From a virus, in IMG/VR virus record IMGVR_UViG_3300007735_000457, positions 1 to 20,847 of that record: a DNA stretch of 20,847 nucleotides; one strand, written 5' to 3'. Shown piece by piece: positions 4,622 through 15,771 of the stretch. Every line of letters starts with the position of its first letter. The stretch's first letter is position 1. Both the position numbers and the translations under genes were made by a program. Below the pieces are notes generated by a model. The model saw only the letters and a list, made by a program, of their open reading frames with translations. It did not search any database and was not told where the DNA came from.

Positions 4622-5539
4622 ATGTCATCAACGATGCTCCAACTTGTGCAACAGACTACTAGCGAGTTAAACCTTGCTATTCCTACCTATGTTGCGGGTA
4701 ACACTAATCAGGATGTCCAACAGGTTTTAGCCCTAATGAATCGTGTAGGCTATGACTTAGTTAAAGAGCATGATTGGCAAGCCTTACAGTTGGAGTATCG
4801 GTTTTACACCGATGCAGTCACCTTTGTAGGGGCTACAGTTAGCGACCAAAGCTATAACCTTATTGTTACTGGTGACGCTACCGCCCTTAATAGCAATTAT
4901 TCCATTACAGGCACAGGCATTAACCAAGATACTTATGTATTGTCTGTAACCTATAACGGCACGAGCTCGACTATTGTGATGAGCCAGTTGGCTAGTGGTA
5001 CATACGCAGGCGTGACTTTTACCTTTTCACAGACCAAATATCCGCTACCCAATGACTTTGAAACCATTACGGATAATACGCATTGGGATAAAACGAAACA
5101 TTGGCAGATGCTTGGCCCTGAAGATGCCCAACAATGGCAATGGCTAAAGTCGGGTTATATTTCCACAGGCCCACGCATTAGATGGCGTATTCTAGGCAAT
5201 AAATTCCAAATTTGGCCACCATATAACACACAAGAGTATTTAGGTTTTGAATACCGCTCAAAAGGTTGGGCTAGAAGTATTACCGACCAAGTAAAGAACA
5301 GCTTTACACAAGATACCGATACAACCATATTTGACGATACAGTCATGGTTTTAGGTACAAAACTTAAGTATTTCCAAATCAAAGGATTTGACACTACTGC
5401 ATTGCAACAAGACTATTTCCGCTATCTAAATGTCGCTAAAGCCAACGATAAAGGCTCTGCCAATCTGTCGTTTGCACCCTACCCAACGAAGGTGCTTATC
5501 GGTTACGCTAACATCCCAGACACTGGCTATGGGACTTAA
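4622..5539 (+). CDS. Head-tail adaptor-like protein with an inserted beta domain
   Basis: 305 residues. The N-terminal helices (VLALMNRVGYDLVKEHDWQA) followed by YPLPNDFETIT, LGPEDAQQWQWLKSG and GFEYRSKGWA match the pattern of podovirus head-tail connector or tail-tubular-A-like proteins, which form a dodecameric ring under the portal. Residues about 65-138 (from TFVGATVSDQSYNL to GVTFTFSQ) do not fit the helical adaptor and look like a beta-sandwich inserted between the first helix bundle and the LPNDF segment. The stop overlaps the stop of the antisense HNH gene (TTAA at 5536-5539). The ring-forming role is inferred from position and pattern. Confidence 0.7.
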   Translation: MSSTMLQLVQQTTSELNLAIPTYVAGNTNQDVQQVLALMNRVGYDLVKEHDWQALQLEYRFYTDAVTFVGATVSDQSYNLIVTGDATALNSNYSITGTGINQDTYVLSVTYNGTSSTIVMSQLASGTYAGVTFTFSQTKYPLPNDFETITDNTHWDKTKHWQMLGPEDAQQWQWLKSGYISTGPRIRWRILGNKFQIWPPYNTQEYLGFEYRSKGWARSITDQVKNSFTQDTDTTIFDDTVMVLGTKLKYFQIKGFDTTALQQDYFRYLNVAKANDKGSANLSFAPYPTKVLIGYANIPDTGYGT

Positions 5540-6018
5540 TGATGTTTCCATCGAGTGCCATTTTTAATTCGACTTATAAGGCTTTGTTTTACGCCATATT
5601 CTTCCGCAATAATGCGTTGAATTCTATTGTCCTTACGAATGGCATCAACTTGAAATTGTTTCAATTTAGCCCAATTACAGCGTTCTCCACTATTACTGGT
5701 GTTATGTCCAAACTTATCAAGAATGTTATTTTTGTGAGTATCCCAACGCAAATTTTCAACATGGTTGTTGAAAGAATTTCCATCGTTATGGCAACCTTCC
5801 ATTCCTTCAGGGCAAACACTAACAAATGCTTCAAGAACAAGTTTATGTGGTTTTCGAATATATGGCTTGTTTTCTTTCCAAAGGTTTACAAAAGGTCGAT
5901 TAAGTTTTTTATCAACGCTAATTTTTTTAAGTTTTTTCTTTTTAAAGGAACGAACATTTCCATGATTAGAAACTTCATACAAACCTTTAAATCCAACAAC
6001 ATCACGCCATTCTTCCAT
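5536..6018 (-). CDS. NUMOD4/HNH homing endonuclease with C-terminal HTH
   Basis: 160 residues. MEEWRDVVGFKGLYEVSNHG is a clear NUMOD4 motif. The HNH core follows at about 57-100 (HKLVLEAF, then CHNDGNSFNNHVENLRWDTH) with His77, Asn78, Asn85 and Asn89 in place. Residues about 118-157 (AEEYGVKQSLISRIKNGTRW) form a helix-turn-helix of the type used for target recognition. I start at 6018 because CGGAG precedes this ATG by 6 bases; a GTG at 6036 is in frame but has no such site. These are free-standing selfish endonucleases that cut DNA and spread by repair. It is the only gene on this strand within the late block and fills the adaptor-nozzle gap exactly. Confidence 0.92.
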   Translation of the reverse strand: MEEWRDVVGFKGLYEVSNHGNVRSFKKKKLKKISVDKKLNRPFVNLWKENKPYIRKPHKLVLEAFVSVCPEGMEGCHNDGNSFNNHVENLRWDTHKNNILDKFGHNTSNSGERCNWAKLKQFQVDAIRKDNRIQRIIAEEYGVKQSLISRIKNGTRWKHH

Positions 6019-6047
6019 AAGAATCTCCGTTATCACAATATGGGGAT

Positions 6048-8257: not shown

Positions 8258-9316
8258 ATGGGTGGTGGTGGATTTTTAGGATTAGGGCCTGCCCCAAGTG
8301 CACCTGCCGCACCTGATTACAGGGCTGCTGCACAAGAAACTGCGGCTGGTAATTTAGAAGCCGCTAGACAAGCAACTGCGGCTAACCGAGTCAATCAAGT
8401 TACGCCTTATGGCAATCTTAGCTACGCTATTACTGGTGCTGACCCTTATGGCAATCCTACTTGGACTGCTACGCAAACCTTAAGCCCCGCCCAACAACAA
8501 CTTTTAGATTATCAAAACCAAACAAGTCTTGGATTAGGCAAACTTGCTGGTCAAGGACTAGGCTATGTTGAGAATATGCTCAACACCCCGTTTGATACAA
8601 GCAAATTGCCATCGACAGGGTTTAACCCTAGTCAGACCTACCAAGAAGCCTATATGCAACGGCTTGCCCCCCAATTACAAATGGGGCGTGAGCAATTAGC
8701 ACAAGACTTAGCAAACAAAGGCATCGATATTGGCTCTAAGGCGTATGAAAACGCTATGCGTATACAAGCCCAAAGAGAAAATGACCTATTGTTAGGTGCT
8801 ACAACTCAAGGTTTTGGCGTTGGTCAACAAGCCCGTCAGACTGCTTTGCAAGAGCAAGCCTACCTCAGAAACGAGCCATTAAACACTTTATCTGCGGTTC
8901 GTACAGGGGCACAAGTGCAAGGCCCACAATTTGTTAATTCTGCCCAACAAGCAACGACTGCTGGCCCTGATATATTGGGTGCTGCACAGATGGGATACAA
9001 CGCCCAAATGGGTGACTTTAACGCTAGAAATGCCGCTCAAGCTAACCTTAATCAAGGTTTATTTAGTTTAGGTGGTGCTGCAATGATGGGATTTTCTGAT
9101 ATTAGATTAAAAGAAAACATTAAAGCAATCGGTGTAATGGATAACGGCTTAACCTTATATAGTTTTGAATACAAAGACGAAATTAAATCGCACCCATTAG
9201 CAGGTGATGGTATCCATGTTGGAGTCATGGCACAAGAAGTAGAGCAAGTATTCCCTTATGCAGTTAAAACCCTCGATGACGGCTATAAAGTCGTAGATTA
9301 CGGACTATTACCATGA
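8258..9316 (+). CDS. Virion protein with C-terminal S74 self-cleaving chaperone domain
   Basis: 352 residues. The N-terminus is Gly/Ala/Pro-rich (MGGGGFLGLGPAPSAPAAPD), the middle is helical and Gln-rich with YEN and ARN repeats, and the last about 73 residues form a peptidase S74 (intramolecular chaperone) domain: FSDIRLKENIKAIG, GLTLYSFEYK, GVMAQEVEQVFPYAV and VVDYGLL. Ser280 and Lys285 sit as in the known S74 Ser-Lys dyad, so cleavage just before Ser280 after trimerisation is expected. S74 domains usually end tailspikes or fibres; here the domain ends a protein in the ejection-protein position. GGGAGA precedes the ATG, and the stop overlaps the next start by 4 bases. Confidence 0.8.
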   Translation: MGGGGFLGLGPAPSAPAAPDYRAAAQETAAGNLEAARQATAANRVNQVTPYGNLSYAITGADPYGNPTWTATQTLSPAQQQLLDYQNQTSLGLGKLAGQGLGYVENMLNTPFDTSKLPSTGFNPSQTYQEAYMQRLAPQLQMGREQLAQDLANKGIDIGSKAYENAMRIQAQRENDLLLGATTQGFGVGQQARQTALQEQAYLRNEPLNTLSAVRTGAQVQGPQFVNSAQQATTAGPDILGAAQMGYNAQMGDFNARNAAQANLNQGLFSLGGAAMMGFSDIRLKENIKAIGVMDNGLTLYSFEYKDEIKSHPLAGDGIHVGVMAQEVEQVFPYAVKTLDDGYKVVDYGLLP

Positions 9317-11098: not shown

Positions 11099-12747
11099 GC
11101 GATTGGGAAAGAATATCCTCGCCACAAAGTTCGGCAAAGTCTGAGCCTGTTTCTGATAATTGGGAGCGTGTTCAAGCTAATGCACCATCAGGTGCTTATG
11201 AACGCTTTTTAGATAGCCTACGCAACCTCCAAACAGGTGGTCGTAGTGGCGTTGTTGGCCCTGCATTAGTAGGCGGTACAGGCGAATTAATTAAAGGTGC
11301 TGGTGCTTTAACGCAAATGGCGTTTCCTGACGCTGGTACACGCATGGTTGAGGTTGGTGAAGCAATGACTGAGGGTGCTAAAAGTGTAGCCCCAGTATCC
11401 GCTACAGCAGGGCAAATTGGCTCTTATTTAATACCATTTGGTGCTGCTCAAAAAGCCACAACTGCTATTGCTAATATTCCGCAAGTTGCTAGACAAATAG
11501 GTCAATTACCAAGTTTTGCTAGGGCTGTAGGACAACAAGCGACTATTGGTGGAACTTTAGGTTATGGGTTAACTCCTGACCAACAGAATCGTGAACAAGC
11601 CGCCACATTTGGTACTTTAACTGGTGCAGCTACCCCATTTGTTGAAAAAGCGGTTCGTGGTACTGTTAACTTATTGCGTGGCACACCCCCATCACAGGGC
11701 ACAATGCAAGCCGCTAAAGAGGCCCAAGAAGCAGGTTATGTAATACCCCCTACCCAAGTTAAACCATCGTTGTTAAATCGTTTAATTGAAGGCTCGGCTG
11801 GTAAGATTTCTACAGCACAAAACGCTAGTTTTAGAAACCAACAAGTAACTAATCAGTTAGCCGCAAAGTCTTTAGGATTGCCTGAAGATGTTGTTATTAC
11901 CCCCGAAGTCTTAACTAATTTAAGAACTACAGCAGGAAAAGCATACGAAAATCTAGGTGCTACTGGAACTATTAAGACTAGCCCTAAATTTAATCAGGCT
12001 TTAGACGATATTAAAGTTTACAAAGATGCAAAATTAGCCGAAGCTCAATTTCCTACTGGCAAAATCAATCCTATTATTGAAACCATTGATTCGTTACGCT
12101 CACCCAGTTTTGATGTAAGTTCTGCGGTTTCCAAGATTAATGTATTGCGTAATGACGCAGATATAGCTTATAGAGCAGGCGACAAAGCATTAGGTAAAGC
12201 TAATAAAGAAGCAAGCCAAGTATTAGAAGATACTATTCAAAACTACCTTGCTAACACCAAACAAACTGATTTGTTGCAAAAATTTAAAGATGCTCGCCAA
12301 TTAATAGCTAAGACTTATTCTGTAGAAAACGCATTAAATCAAACTACAGGTTCTATTGATGCTAAAAAATTAGCTGCTCAATTAGCTAAAGGCAAGCCAT
12401 TGTCAGGCGAATTAAAACAATCTGCTCAATTTGCTCAAGCCTTTCCAACAGCCGCCCAAACAACTGAAAGAATGGGTAGCATACCCCAAACAAGTCCATT
12501 AGATTTGTATGCAAGTTTAGGTCTTGGTACGGCTGGATTGTATGGCGGTGATGCTCAAACAGGTGCTTTAGGTTTTGCAACTGGAGCTATTCGACCAGCT
12601 TTGCGAGCTACTGCATTATCAAAACCTGTACAAAGCAGATTAACTAATCAACAAATGCAACAACTGTCACCCGATGTCCGTAATTTAGCTAAAATGTTAA
12701 TGCTACAAGGGGCAACAAAAGCAGGTGCAAACGAGGAGCAAAAATGA
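11095..12747 (+). CDS. Probable ejection (pore/internal virion) protein
   Basis: 550 residues. It opens with a duplicated short motif (SDWERISS and SDNWERVQA) common at the start of phage ejection proteins. It contains Gly/Ala-rich hydrophobic stretches that could enter a membrane: about 50-76 (GRSGVVGPALVGGTGELIKG), 100-120, 145-160 and 465-493 (LGLGTAGLYGGDAQTG). The middle is helical and Lys-rich (residues about 270-440). Amphipathic glycine-rich segments plus helices fit proteins that form a channel across the host envelope during DNA delivery; the role is inferred. It overlaps both neighbours by 4 bases (ATGA). Confidence 0.6.
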   Translation: MSDWERISSPQSSAKSEPVSDNWERVQANAPSGAYERFLDSLRNLQTGGRSGVVGPALVGGTGELIKGAGALTQMAFPDAGTRMVEVGEAMTEGAKSVAPVSATAGQIGSYLIPFGAAQKATTAIANIPQVARQIGQLPSFARAVGQQATIGGTLGYGLTPDQQNREQAATFGTLTGAATPFVEKAVRGTVNLLRGTPPSQGTMQAAKEAQEAGYVIPPTQVKPSLLNRLIEGSAGKISTAQNASFRNQQVTNQLAAKSLGLPEDVVITPEVLTNLRTTAGKAYENLGATGTIKTSPKFNQALDDIKVYKDAKLAEAQFPTGKINPIIETIDSLRSPSFDVSSAVSKINVLRNDADIAYRAGDKALGKANKEASQVLEDTIQNYLANTKQTDLLQKFKDARQLIAKTYSVENALNQTTGSIDAKKLAAQLAKGKPLSGELKQSAQFAQAFPTAAQTTERMGSIPQTSPLDLYASLGLGTAGLYGGDAQTGALGFATGAIRPALRATALSKPVQSRLTNQQMQQLSPDVRNLAKMLMLQGATKAGANEEQK

Positions 12748-13325
12748 GTAGAAACGGGTCAGGCACATATACACTACCTGCGGGTAATCCCGTAGTAACA
12801 GGCACAACCATATCAAGTTCATGGGCTAATAACACCATGAATGACTTGGCTGCCGCTTTAACTGATTCGGTTGCCGCAGATGGTCAAACCCCAATGACGG
12901 GTAACTTAGACCTAAACACTAACAAAATTGTTAACTTAGTAGCTGGTACTGTTGCAGGTGATGCAATAGAGTTTGCACAATTTAAGACACCTACCTTTAC
13001 TGGTAATGTGACAATGACTTCTACAGGGTTTGCATTAATTCCCGCAGGAACTACCGCAGAACGCCCCGTAAGCCCCGCAAATGGTCAGATTCGTTATAAC
13101 ACCACGACTTCTCAGTTTGAAGGCTATCAAGGCGGTGCATGGGGTCAATTAGGCGGTGGTGCAACAGGCGGTGGTGGCGATGAGGTATTTGTAGAAAACA
13201 GCACGACTGTCACGACTTCTTACACGCTGACTACTGGCAAAAATGCCATGTCAACAGGGCCTATCACTATCAATGCGGGTGCTGTAGTTACCGTGCCAAG
13301 CGGTCAGAGATGGGTGGTATTGTAA
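12744..13325 (+). CDS. Tail fibre base / virion-attachment protein
   Basis: 193 residues. MSRNGSGTYTLPAGNPVVTG and SSSWANNTMNDLAAALTDSV are the characteristic opening of podovirus tail fibres, the part that binds the tail. MTGNLDLNTNKIVNLVAG and the TFTGNVTMTS repeats are typical of fibre shafts, followed by RPVSPANGQIRYNTTTSQFE (a trimer-cap segment) and a Gly-rich hinge. The protein ends after about 50 further residues (VPSGQRWVVL) without a receptor-binding head, so the tip is probably supplied by the separate genes downstream. AGGAG at 12734-12738 precedes the ATG, which overlaps the previous stop. Confidence 0.8.
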   Translation: MSRNGSGTYTLPAGNPVVTGTTISSSWANNTMNDLAAALTDSVAADGQTPMTGNLDLNTNKIVNLVAGTVAGDAIEFAQFKTPTFTGNVTMTSTGFALIPAGTTAERPVSPANGQIRYNTTTSQFEGYQGGAWGQLGGGATGGGGDEVFVENSTTVTTSYTLTTGKNAMSTGPITINAGAVVTVPSGQRWVVL

Positions 13326-13367
13326 GATGAAAACCACTAAAATAAACAAACATTTAGGAGTAAAACA

Positions 13368-13940
13368 ATGAGTATTGTACTTGTCGGTTCAACGAGTGGT
13401 AGCTGTACGCTTCAAGAGCAAGCGGTGGCTGGCAATACCACTTTGACCTTGCCTACCGTATCAGGAACTATTCTAACGACTGGCTCAAGCGGTCAGTCTA
13501 TTCCTAAAGCCGCATTACCAACTGGTTCTGTTTTGCAAGTGGTTCAAGCTACTTACTCAACTTCTACAAGCACAACTTCAGGAAGTTTTGTGGATTTAGG
13601 ATTGTCAGCTTCTATTACTCCTACAAGTTCTTCTAGCAAAATATTAGCAATAGCGTGTTTAAGTGCTGTTTATAAGAATGGTGCAAATTCTTCTGTTGGA
13701 GTCAATATTGTTAGAGGTTCTACAGAAATTGTAAAGTTTTCTGAAAATACTCTTTCTTACACAAATACAACAGGAGCAAGTGGAGTTTCTGCAACAATGA
13801 ATTATTTAGATAGCCCAGCGACAACTTCTTCAACTACTTATAAAATTCAATTTAAAAATGGTTCAGGAACAGGAACAAATGTAACTATAAATGATAGCAA
13901 TGTTACATCTACTTTAACACTTATGGAGATTGCGGCATGA
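13368..13940 (+). CDS. Fibre module: beta-rich adhesin-like protein 1
   Basis: 190 residues, Ser/Thr/Gly-rich beta-strand pattern. The N-terminus (MSIVLVGSTSGSCTLQEQAV, then TLTLPTVSGTILTTGS) is a short leader widely seen in phage fibre proteins. The C-terminal two thirds run from about residue 60 to TSTLTLMEIAA and form the probable receptor-binding domain. GC is near 50% over 13381-13500 but near 30-35% over 13621-13860, so the distal part looks acquired separately. TTAGGAG precedes the ATG. It overlaps the small chaperone-type gene by 4 bases. Confidence 0.65.
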   Translation: MSIVLVGSTSGSCTLQEQAVAGNTTLTLPTVSGTILTTGSSGQSIPKAALPTGSVLQVVQATYSTSTSTTSGSFVDLGLSASITPTSSSSKILAIACLSAVYKNGANSSVGVNIVRGSTEIVKFSENTLSYTNTTGASGVSATMNYLDSPATTSSTTYKIQFKNGSGTGTNVTINDSNVTSTLTLMEIAA

Positions 13941-14209
13941 GAACTACAGACGCCATCTATAAACTAAACCCATCCGTAGTAACCATTCGTGGCGATGTAG
14001 CCTACGATGCCGATGGTAACGAAGTCGCATACGATAAAGATGCAGTTCAGGCTTATGTTGATGCTCATGCTTATATTGCTAAACGAGCCGCAGAATACCC
14101 ACCCATCGGTGACCAATTAGATGCGTTATGGAAGGGCGGTGCAGAAGCCGAAGCAATGCTCGCTAAAGTCCAAGCGGTTAAGGCTCGTTTTCCAAAAGGA
14201 GTTAAATAA
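13937..14209 (+). CDS. Small fibre-associated protein, tail chaperone type
   Basis: 90 residues: MRTTDAIYKLNPSVVTIRGD, then YDADGNEVAYDKDAVQAYVD and a C-terminal KRAAEYPPIGDQLDALWKGG. The YPPIGDQLDALWK motif is shared by small phage proteins encoded next to fibre genes and often called tail fibre assembly or chaperone proteins. It is acidic to neutral, helical at the end, with no signal or TM segment. It starts in the stop of the fibre module (ATGA) and its own stop overlaps the next start (TAATG), so it is made in step with them. The chaperone role is inferred. Confidence 0.65.
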   Translation: MRTTDAIYKLNPSVVTIRGDVAYDADGNEVAYDKDAVQAYVDAHAYIAKRAAEYPPIGDQLDALWKGGAEAEAMLAKVQAVKARFPKGVK

Positions 14210-14763
14210 TGGCTAGTGTTATAACGGCAACAACCACCTCAGGGCTAACCCAGCAAGCCGACAACTCTGGTGTATTACAGTTAGCATCGGGAACTGGTAA
14301 CTTAGTTACGATTCCATCCGTTACAGGAACAGCGATGGTTAGCGGTAATATGCCAGCGTTTAGTGCTTTTAAAACAACTACAAATCAAACATATACTCAA
14401 AATACAAATACTAAAGTTGTTTTTGATGCAGAAGAATTTGATACTGCCAATTGTTTTGATAGCACTACAAATTATCGTTTTACCCCAAATGTGGCTGGAT
14501 ATTACCAATTAACTTGTGGTGTAGGTCAAAATAATGGAACTTCATATTGGGAACTTAAATTATATAAAAATGGTTCATATTATCGACAATTTGTTACATC
14601 CCAAACAAGCACATTTTATTCTTTAAACGGAACTACATTAGTTTACGCAAACGGAACAACAGATTATTTTGAAATTTATGTTTATGCAACAGGAACATCG
14701 CCAACTCTTGCTTATACAAACGCATATACATTCTTTCAAGGCTCATTGGTAAGGACTGCATAA
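14209..14763 (+). CDS. Fibre module: C1q-like jelly-roll adhesin
   Basis: 184 residues. A short leader (about 1-45, with NLVTIPSVTGTAMVSG, comparable to the leader of the previous module) is followed by a C1q/TNF-like domain. The visible elements are MPAFSAFKTTTNQTYTQNT, TKVVFDAEEFDT, NCFD, YRFTPNVAGYYQLTCGV, LKLYKNGS and TDYFEIYVYA up to a terminal FFQGSLVRTA. C1q domains form trimers and are used by phages as receptor-binding tips. GC falls from about 50% in the first 60 bases to near 25-37% from 14341 on. AGGAG precedes the ATG. Confidence 0.75.
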   Translation: MASVITATTTSGLTQQADNSGVLQLASGTGNLVTIPSVTGTAMVSGNMPAFSAFKTTTNQTYTQNTNTKVVFDAEEFDTANCFDSTTNYRFTPNVAGYYQLTCGVGQNNGTSYWELKLYKNGSYYRQFVTSQTSTFYSLNGTTLVYANGTTDYFEIYVYATGTSPTLAYTNAYTFFQGSLVRTA

Positions 14764-14918
14764 TGTACGAAAAAATCATGGCTTTATATCCTAGCCTTAC
14801 AACTGAAGATTTCTTGACTGTAATCACACTTCAAAACGATTCAGACGGCAAAGGCGATTACATAGCAAAGTGGGAACATCCTACTCTACCCCGCCCAACA
14901 GATGAGGAGTTAGCATAA
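14763..14918 (+). CDS. Very small XkdW-like fibre-associated protein (51 aa)
   Basis: Fifty-one residues beginning MYEKIMALYPSLTTEDF and ending KWEHPTLPRPTDEELA. The pattern LQNDSDGKGDYIAKWEHP followed by LPRPTDEEL matches the XkdW-type family of small proteins located after fibre genes in prophages such as PBSX. It is joined to both neighbours by TAATG overlaps (14761-14765 and 14916-14920), which strongly supports it as a real gene despite its size. The role in fibre assembly is inferred from association only. Confidence 0.7.
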   Translation: MYEKIMALYPSLTTEDFLTVITLQNDSDGKGDYIAKWEHPTLPRPTDEELA

Positions 14919-15469
14919 TGCCTATTACATTAGACGGCACAAACGGAGTTACGACTAATTCGGGAACTCTTATCTCTGCTACAACCATTGGTGTTGGCGG
15001 TGCTACCCCATCTACTAGCGGTGCTGGTATTACCTTTCCAGCAACACAATCCGCATCAACCGATGCTAATACGCTAGATGATTATGAAGAAGGTACTTAC
15101 ACAGCAACTTTAATCCCACAAAATAGCGGTTCAATTACGCTTTCTGCAAACACTTTATCTTATACAAAAGTAGGTAGATTGGTAACAGTTACAGGCTATC
15201 TTTCAACTACTTCTGTATCTAGCCCAACTGGATATTTAAAACTTTCTTTGCCATTTGCTTGTGGTTCTGGTAGTTCAAAACAATCGGCTGGATTTTTTAT
15301 TGGAAATTCTCTTGCAAGTGGAAATGTTTTAAATTTTTGGACTTATATCCCTGATAGCGATACGACTGCAAATATATTTTTAGGCGGCTCAACAAGCGTA
15401 TCTACAACTTCAGCACAAACTTGGGGCGGCACTTCTGAAGCTAGAATTTGCATAACCTATTCTGTTTAA
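14918..15469 (+). CDS. Fibre module: beta-rich adhesin-like protein 2
   Basis: 183 residues. It begins MPITLDGTNGVTTNSGTL and has FPATQSASTDANTLDDYEEG, then TYTATLIPQNSGSITL and YTKVGRLVTVTGYLS, a combination very common in phage fibre or capsid-associated adhesins from aquatic viromes. The last 100 residues are beta-rich with Ser/Thr and a final TWGGTSEARICITYSV. Base composition becomes AT-rich after about 15110, as in the two preceding modules. GAGGAG at 14904-14909 provides the ribosome site and the start overlaps the previous stop. Confidence 0.65.
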   Translation: MPITLDGTNGVTTNSGTLISATTIGVGGATPSTSGAGITFPATQSASTDANTLDDYEEGTYTATLIPQNSGSITLSANTLSYTKVGRLVTVTGYLSTTSVSSPTGYLKLSLPFACGSGSSKQSAGFFIGNSLASGNVLNFWTYIPDSDTTANIFLGGSTSVSTTSAQTWGGTSEARICITYSV

Positions 15470-15478
15470 GGAATAAAA

Positions 15479-15733
15479 ATGGCACTCACAGAAAACACAA
15501 GCATTGACCAAATAGAAATAATAAGCGATTGGAATATTCAAGTTCGTCAAGCTACAGTTATTGAACGGGATGGTGAATTTGTATCAAGAACATTTCATCG
15601 TTGGGTATTAACTCCTGATATGGACATTAGCGACCAAGAACAAAAAGTAAAAGATATTGCTAATGCCGCATGGACACCTGAAGTTCGCCAAGCATACGAA
15701 ACATTTAAGGCTGAACAAAGGATGGGAATGTAA
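15479..15733 (+). CDS. Small fibre-linked protein of chaperone type (84 aa)
   Basis: 84 residues: MALTENTSIDQIEIISDWNI, QVRQATVIERDGEFVSRTFH with RWVLTPDMD, and a helical end KDIANAAWTPEVRQAYETFK. The RDGxxxSRTFHRWVLTP motif and WTPE helix recur in small proteins next to phage fibre genes. It has AAGGAA before the ATG and follows the third beta-rich module by 9 bases, so each fibre module in this region has one small partner gene after it. The biochemical role is unknown. Confidence 0.6.
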   Translation: MALTENTSIDQIEIISDWNIQVRQATVIERDGEFVSRTFHRWVLTPDMDISDQEQKVKDIANAAWTPEVRQAYETFKAEQRMGM

Positions 15734-15771
15734 TGACTGATGCTAAGACTTATGTAGAGAGCTTGCCATAA
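15733..15771 (+). other. 12-codon minicistron bridging two genes
   Basis: A reading frame of 12 codons (MTDAKTYVESLP) whose ATG overlaps the upstream stop as TAATG and whose TAA overlaps the downstream ATG in the same way. It has no recognisable domain and may serve only to keep ribosomes moving between the genes. Chance cannot be excluded in sequence of this composition. Confidence 0.3.

What the first reader, a model, noticed from the sequence alone, without database searches (positions are those of the whole stretch)
12744..15733. Split, modular adhesin system with one chaperone per module
Instead of one long fibre gene, a short base protein is followed by three separate beta modules (13368, 14209 C1q-like, 14918), each followed by a distinct small partner gene (13937, 14763, 15479). 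All are joined by stop-start overlaps or very short gaps. This could be a set of alternative or combined receptor-binding tips with dedicated assembly factors, allowing broad or switchable host range.
Basis: inference. Interest (0 to 1): 0.7.

Follow-up and report, generated by a model that had tools for sequence, protein, structure and literature searches.

The report
Swappable phage adhesin cassettes with helpers
A freshwater phage carries three interchangeable cell-grabbing tips, each with a small helper gene that stays with the same kind of tip in hundreds of related and unrelated phages, which suggests that the helpers are dedicated folding aids.

Summary
Base 12744-13325 is followed by three beta modules (A, B, C), each with its own small partner (ptA, ptB, ptC), nearly all joined by stop-start overlaps. 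In 409 fetched loci the unit is [swappable N-terminal head][C-terminal body][partner]. Partner class follows the body almost perfectly (adjusted mutual information (AMI) 0.957 over 453 junctions; no cross-pairing in 413 A, B, C and E cases). It does not follow the next gene, although that gene is just as close (AMI 0.138). The pairing holds in GenBank phages of other families, including P-SSP7. Body A matches the C-terminus of a solved 18-copy protein, body B is C1q-like, and body C models as a viral receptor-binding head. Modules ending in an S74 self-chaperone domain never have a partner (0/38, against 477/586). The window holds a 52-nt scar of a lost cassette E. The best reading is receptor-binding heads with class-specific assembly chaperones, exchanged as cassettes. 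The chaperone role is inferred, not shown.

The parts
12744..13325 (+). Base protein (193 aa): conserved tail-fibre stem with its own C-terminal cap (...VTVPSGQRWVVL); no partner of its own
   Evidence: PHROG hits to structural and fibre proteins; 269 relatives in viral contigs; in L154, L159, L382 and L075 the same N-terminus is fused directly to a D, A or F body
13368..13940 (+). Module A: swappable head (about residues 1-40) plus receptor-binding body A (ends MEIAA)
   Evidence: Profile of 52 relatives matches PDB 9efk_AE orf22 residues 475-656, 18 chains, E 1.5e-19; always followed by ptA when a partner is adjacent
13937..14209 (+). ptA: partner of body A; body-specific N-half, interchangeable helical C-half
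   Evidence: phrog_9114, unknown function, 2e-11; no Pfam or PDB family; pairing 128/139 with body A and none with B, C or E; C-half swaps
14209..14763 (+). Module B: swappable head plus C1q-like receptor-binding body
   Evidence: Pfam C1q in 6 of 31 family members; PDB C1q-like proteins E 1e-5; phrog_12754 and phrog_15750
14763..14918 (+). ptB: partner of body B, XkdW family
   Evidence: Pfam XkdW 2.5e-8 above cutoff; PDB 2hg7 XkdW E 2.7e-6; 111/120 B-bodies followed by ptB
14918..15469 (+). Module C: head plus receptor-binding body C (DANTLDDYEEGT motif)
   Evidence: phrog_17970; model residues 56-184 align to the Dettilon tailspike C-terminal domain Z 12.6, rmsd 2.8, 127 aligned, then mostly to reovirus, adenovirus and lactophage attachment heads
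15479..15733 (+). ptC: partner of body C; three-strand beta meander plus two helices
   Evidence: phrog_6228 1e-19; AlphaFold pLDDT 93.6; 57/58 C-bodies followed by ptC; last codons written in the ptE remnant
15720..15771 (+). Scar: 3' end of a lost ptE gene (residual reading MTDAKTYVESLP*), overlapping the end of ptC
   Evidence: 90.7% identity over 75 nt (including downstream sequence) to the ptE 3' end of the close relative L082/L004, which still has cassette E here

Best explanation
The stretch is an array of receptor-binding-protein cassettes. Each cassette has a short exchangeable N-terminal head (inferred to dock on the tail or base), a trimer-type receptor-binding body, and a small downstream partner specific to that body class. 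The partner most likely acts in trans as an assembly chaperone: its N-half recognises the conserved part of the body and its C-terminal helices are a replaceable assembly unit. It does for these bodies what the fused S74 domain does for self-chaperoned fibres. Whole cassettes are exchanged between phages by recombination at heads and at partner ends, with homing endonucleases sitting between cassettes in relatives. Shown: gene anatomy, homology and fold of the bodies, body-partner locking, S74 and partner never together, exchange and scar. Inferred: chaperone activity, docking by the head, presence of all three heads on one virion.
For: Body-partner AMI 0.957 against 0.138 for the equally close next junction. 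C-terminal 90 aa communities predict partner AMI 0.917, N-terminal 35 aa only 0.445; nearest-neighbour agreement 98.8% vs 82%, chance 22%. No cross-pairings among A, B, C and E in 413 cases. Same pairs in Zobellviridae, Autographiviridae and Kyanoviridae phages (for C1q plus XkdW). S74 modules with partner 0/38 vs 477/586, and 0/6 vs 117/148 in loci not fetched by partner; S74 confirmed by Pfam 3.6e-13. Partner C-halves shared between partner types, N-halves body-specific. Body folds. Precedents with experiment: Pam3 gp24/gp25 (PMC9608196), V22 gp26/gp27 (PMC7289586), A5 (PMC10579305). Backbone 94-97% identical to L082 while cassettes differ, plus scar.
Against: No partner except XkdW matches a named family, and XkdW has no described function in anything I read. 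The ptC model finds no chaperone in the PDB (inconclusive). S74 modules are one body class, so the Fisher p overstates independence. P-SSP7 has four A-bodies and one ptA, so strict one-to-one dependence is wrong. AlphaFold of the C-ptC read-through chain was weak (pLDDT 62) and gave no usable interface.
Confidence: 0.7

Rival explanations
1. The partners are small structural subunits that stay on the virion (adaptor, cap or tip piece) rather than transient chaperones.
For: Body-class locking would look the same. Mu Tfa is reported to stay bound to its fibre (discussion of PMC10579305).
Against: Mutual exclusion with the S74 self-chaperone. Pam3 gp25 was not found in virions while gp24 was (PMC9608196). 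P-SSP7 has one ptA for four A-bodies. No ptA or ptC homologue is seen in solved structures, although body A is.
Confidence: 0.18
2. Partners are hitchhikers: they stay with the body only because they are adjacent, with no physical partnership.
For: The partner lies immediately 3' of the body, so linkage is tight. The C-halves of partners do recombine.
Against: The partner-next module junction is as tight (median gap -1) yet scrambled (AMI 0.138). Pairs persist across unrelated phage families. Partner protein is strongly conserved while body tips diverge.
Confidence: 0.07
3. The modules are alternative tips used one at a time through a switch (shufflon or phase variation).
For: Several different heads with similar N-termini in one array.
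Against: All same strand, translationally coupled. No inverted repeats suited to inversion (only a 19-nt 84% pair inside genes). No invertase-like product stood out among the window's ORFs, though this was not searched systematically.
Confidence: 0.04

Closest known systems
Pam3 tail fibre gp24 and chaperone gp25 (PMC9608196)
   Same: Freshwater phage; short fibre with TNF-like head followed by a small gene; chaperone with N-terminal beta domain that grips the fibre and C-terminal helices that trimerise; chaperone absent from virions
   Different: One fibre-chaperone pair, gp25 162 aa and Tfa-like; here three or more pairs in a row with partners of 51-90 aa from different families
Alteromonas phage V22 gp26/gp27 and A5 gp8/gp9 (PMC7289586, PMC10579305)
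   Same: Fibre plus cognate downstream chaperone moved as a unit between unrelated phages; chaperones resemble fused intramolecular chaperone domains
   Different: Single pair per phage, larger chaperones, no head swapping or array described in what I read
XkdW of Bacillus element PBSX (PF09636, PDB 2hg7)
   Same: ptB is a member by sequence
   Different: ptB is 51 aa and covers only about residues 1-46 of the 110-aa XkdW
Peptidase_S74 intramolecular chaperone (PF13884)
   Same: Occupies the same functional slot at the end of other modules in these arrays
   Different: Fused and, in published cases, self-cleaving; partners are separate genes without S74 similarity
Host-recognition metaviromic islands of marine phages (PMC3909814)
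   Same: C1q proteins, fibres and XkdW listed among the most frequent variable-island genes
   Different: There XkdW is listed with unknown function; no body-partner rule was seen in the passages read

Membership tests
XkdW (PF09636), for ptB | Profile match above the curated cutoff | tested here: met
   34 bits vs 24.6 cutoff, E 2.5e-8; PDB 2hg7 XkdW E 2.7e-6
Pfam tail assembly chaperone families (e.g. Phage_tail_APC PF16778), for ptA and ptC | Profile match above the curated cutoff | tested here: not met
   No Pfam family for the window's ptA or ptC; only ptD2 of relatives matches PF16778, below cutoff (13.1 vs 26.6 bits)
Intermolecular tail-fibre chaperones (functional class: gp38, Tfa, Pam3 gp25, V22 gp27) | Encoded directly downstream of its fibre and specific to it | tested here: met
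Intermolecular tail-fibre chaperones (functional class) | Two-part anatomy: fibre-specific N-terminal part, helical C-terminal part | tested here: inconclusive
   ptC model is beta meander plus two helices and C-halves swap, but no PDB fold match
Intermolecular tail-fibre chaperones (functional class) | Needed for folding or trimerisation of the fibre; usually absent from the virion | not testable with these tools
   Needs co-expression and virion proteomics
C1q/TNF-like receptor-binding heads, for module B | C1q profile or structure homology | tested here: met
   6 of 31 family members hit PF00386, best 2e-9; PDB C1q-like proteins E 1.4e-5 with the family profile; the window member alone had no hit
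Viral attachment-head fold, for module C | Structural match of a predicted model | tested here: met
   Z 12.6, rmsd 2.8, 127 aligned to Dettilon tailspike; following rows mostly reovirus, adenovirus and lactophage heads; model confidence modest in places
Shufflon or invertible tail-fibre switch | Inverted repeats flanking the alternative segments | tested here: not met
   Only a 19-nt 84% pair inside modules B and C and a small palindrome

The most novel reading that the evidence does not exclude
Environmental phages share a common 'cassette code': at least eight classes of receptor-binding body, each with its own tiny class-specific chaperone whose body-reading half and generic helical half recombine separately, so that heads, bodies and chaperone tails are exchanged like parts across phage families, and one chaperone can serve several bodies of its class.
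Probability: 0.45. Interest if true: 0.7.

Novelty: new variant of a known kind. Interest (0 to 1): 0.52.

Why it matters
It gives a functional reading to several abundant phage protein families now called 'unknown function' (phrog_9114, phrog_6228, XkdW, and the ptE, ptF, ptD types): each predicts which receptor-binding head it serves. That would let receptor-binding proteins be spotted in metagenomic phages from a conserved 50-90 aa neighbour even when the tip itself is too variable to recognise. It also makes a clear test possible of whether small trans chaperones and fused S74 domains are interchangeable solutions.

Tried and rejected
Near-identity search of GenBank phages with the whole window: no match. 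Genome contigs scan for a host or prophage with the 6056 protein: none, so the host is unknown. Single-linkage clustering of module ends merged everything and was replaced by community detection and nearest neighbours. The C-ptC read-through chain as a pseudo-complex: pLDDT 62, used only for the fold of body C, not for an interface. Fold searches with ptC: no informative PDB match, only uncharacterised phage proteins in the viral library. Paper searches for the solved protein 9efk and for P-SSP7 virion proteomics gave nothing usable. Promoter and terminator scan: no more than chance. Shufflon or phase variation: rejected for lack of inverted repeats. In-gene fusions of partners to modules: none found among the fetched loci.

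Full report
What is in the window. The window is an IMG/VR virus record of 20,847 bases with a major head protein 51% identical to that of Myxococcus phage Mx8, a tail gene block, then holin and endolysin. Between the tail block and lysis lie the base (12744), module A (13368), ptA (13937), module B (14209), ptB (14763), module C (14918) and ptC (15479), all on the + strand. Junctions: base-A 42 nt, A-ptA 4-nt overlap, ptA-B, B-ptB and ptB-C 1-nt overlaps, C-ptC 9-nt gap.

What the modules are. A profile of 52 relatives of module A matches residues 475-656 of PDB 9efk_AE 'orf22' (658 aa, 18 chains) at 1.5e-19; 18 chains would fit six trimers, which is my inference, and I could not identify the phage. 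Module B belongs to a family in which 6 of 31 members hit Pfam C1q, and solved C1q-like proteins match at about 1e-5. Body C, residues 56-184 of the model, aligns to the C-terminal domain of the Dettilon tailspike (Z 12.6, rmsd 2.8, 127 aligned) and then mostly to reovirus, adenovirus and lactophage attachment heads. All three are therefore receptor-binding-head folds or homologues.

What the partners are. ptB is a short XkdW (Pfam 2.5e-8; PDB 2hg7 at 2.7e-6). ptA and ptC match only PHROGs of unknown function. ptC is predicted with high confidence (pLDDT 93.6) as three beta strands followed by two helices; fold searches are uninformative.

The cassette rule. I gathered loci anchored on the base, on the 6056 protein and on each partner. 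In 86 non-redundant base-anchored loci the interval up to lysis is a run of modules and partners of at least eight kinds in varying number and order. In 482 module-partner pairs, communities made from the last 90 residues of the module agree with partner class (AMI 0.917), those from the first 35 much less (0.445); nearest neighbours agree in 98.8% vs 82%, chance 22%. Near-identical N-termini occur with different partners. The natural objection is physical linkage. The control is the next junction: partner to next module is just as tight (median gap -1) but AMI is 0.138, against 0.957 for module to partner. With body profiles, A is followed by ptA in 128/139, B by ptB in 111/120, C by ptC in 57/58 and E by ptE in 117/122, with no cross-pairing among these; the exceptions are gaps or uncalled genes. 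E was never used as a search query, so its result is free of that bias. When the base is fused directly to a body (L382, L154) the matching partner still follows. GenBank phages of other families keep A-ptA, B-ptB, C-ptC and E-ptE: MEP401, MEP402, P-SSP7, S-B05, HTVC120P, HTVC026P and two spring phages (contexts). P-SSP7 has four A-bodies and one ptA, so the rule is one partner per class.

Why a chaperone. Modules that end in an S74 domain (Pfam 3.6e-13 in L003) are never followed by a partner: 0/38 against 477/586. In loci not selected by partner the figures are 0/6 against 117/148, Fisher p 1.4e-4. S74 modules count as one class, so these p-values overstate independence, but MEP401 and HTVC120P show the same in other phages. 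The partners also look two-part: the C-terminal 32 residues (for example LAALGLTQDEVKALVG) are shared across ptA, ptB, ptD and ptF types, while the N-half follows the body (AMI 0.852 vs 0.744). This parallels Pam3 gp25, whose N-terminal domain grips the fibre and whose helices trimerise, and which is absent from virions (PMC9608196). V22 gp27 is needed for a functional fibre, and the A5-like chaperones resemble fused intramolecular chaperones (PMC7289586, PMC10579305).

Exchange in action. The close relative L082/L004 is 94-97% identical to the window outside this region, but its cassettes differ: D with two partners, B, an HNH gene, E. At 15720-15771 the window keeps the 3' end of ptE (MTDAKTYVESLP*), and the last codons of ptC are written in that remnant. 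So a C cassette was joined onto the tail of a former E cassette. In relatives, GIY-YIG and HNH endonuclease genes sit between cassettes and might promote exchange; this is inference.

What is not shown. No partner has been tested for chaperone activity; virion content, docking by the N-terminal head, and any effect on host range are unknown; the host is unknown. Nothing supports switching: no suitable inverted repeats and co-directional coupled genes.

Verdict. Modules as receptor-binding heads: about 0.9. Partners as class-specific assembly chaperones: about 0.7. Fibre-chaperone pairs are known; the multi-class cassette array with tiny class-locked partners is a new variant.

Noticed in passing
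L002, L004, L013, L047, L052 and others, between cassettes: Free-standing GIY-YIG and HNH endonuclease genes sit between adhesin cassettes in many relatives. They may drive cassette exchange.
   Followed up: partly
window 5536-6036 (-): HNH endonuclease gene on the opposite strand inside the structural block, between the 4622 and 6056 genes.
   Followed up: no
window 8258-9316: A structural protein (phrog_6121) whose C-terminus looks like an S74 chaperone domain (SDIRLKENI...), so the window itself holds a self-chaperone type besides the partners (by eye).
   Followed up: no
L046/L047 and L093/L117 (IMGVR_UViG_3300046779_000327, 45,505 bases): This contig carries two different copies of both the base and the 6056 gene, so it may join two related phages or be a concatemer.
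   Followed up: no
L405 (PQ492659.1, Limnohabitans phage DC33): GenBank lists this 39-kb phage under Inoviridae, but it carries body A plus ptA and a lysis gene, as expected of a tailed phage.
   Followed up: no
L013 ORF of 88 aa, L260 ORF of 85 aa, L169/L201/L391 ORFs of 91-98 aa: Further small genes after modules that match none of the partner classes here (after a C1q-like body and after glycine-rich tips), probably additional partner classes.
   Followed up: no
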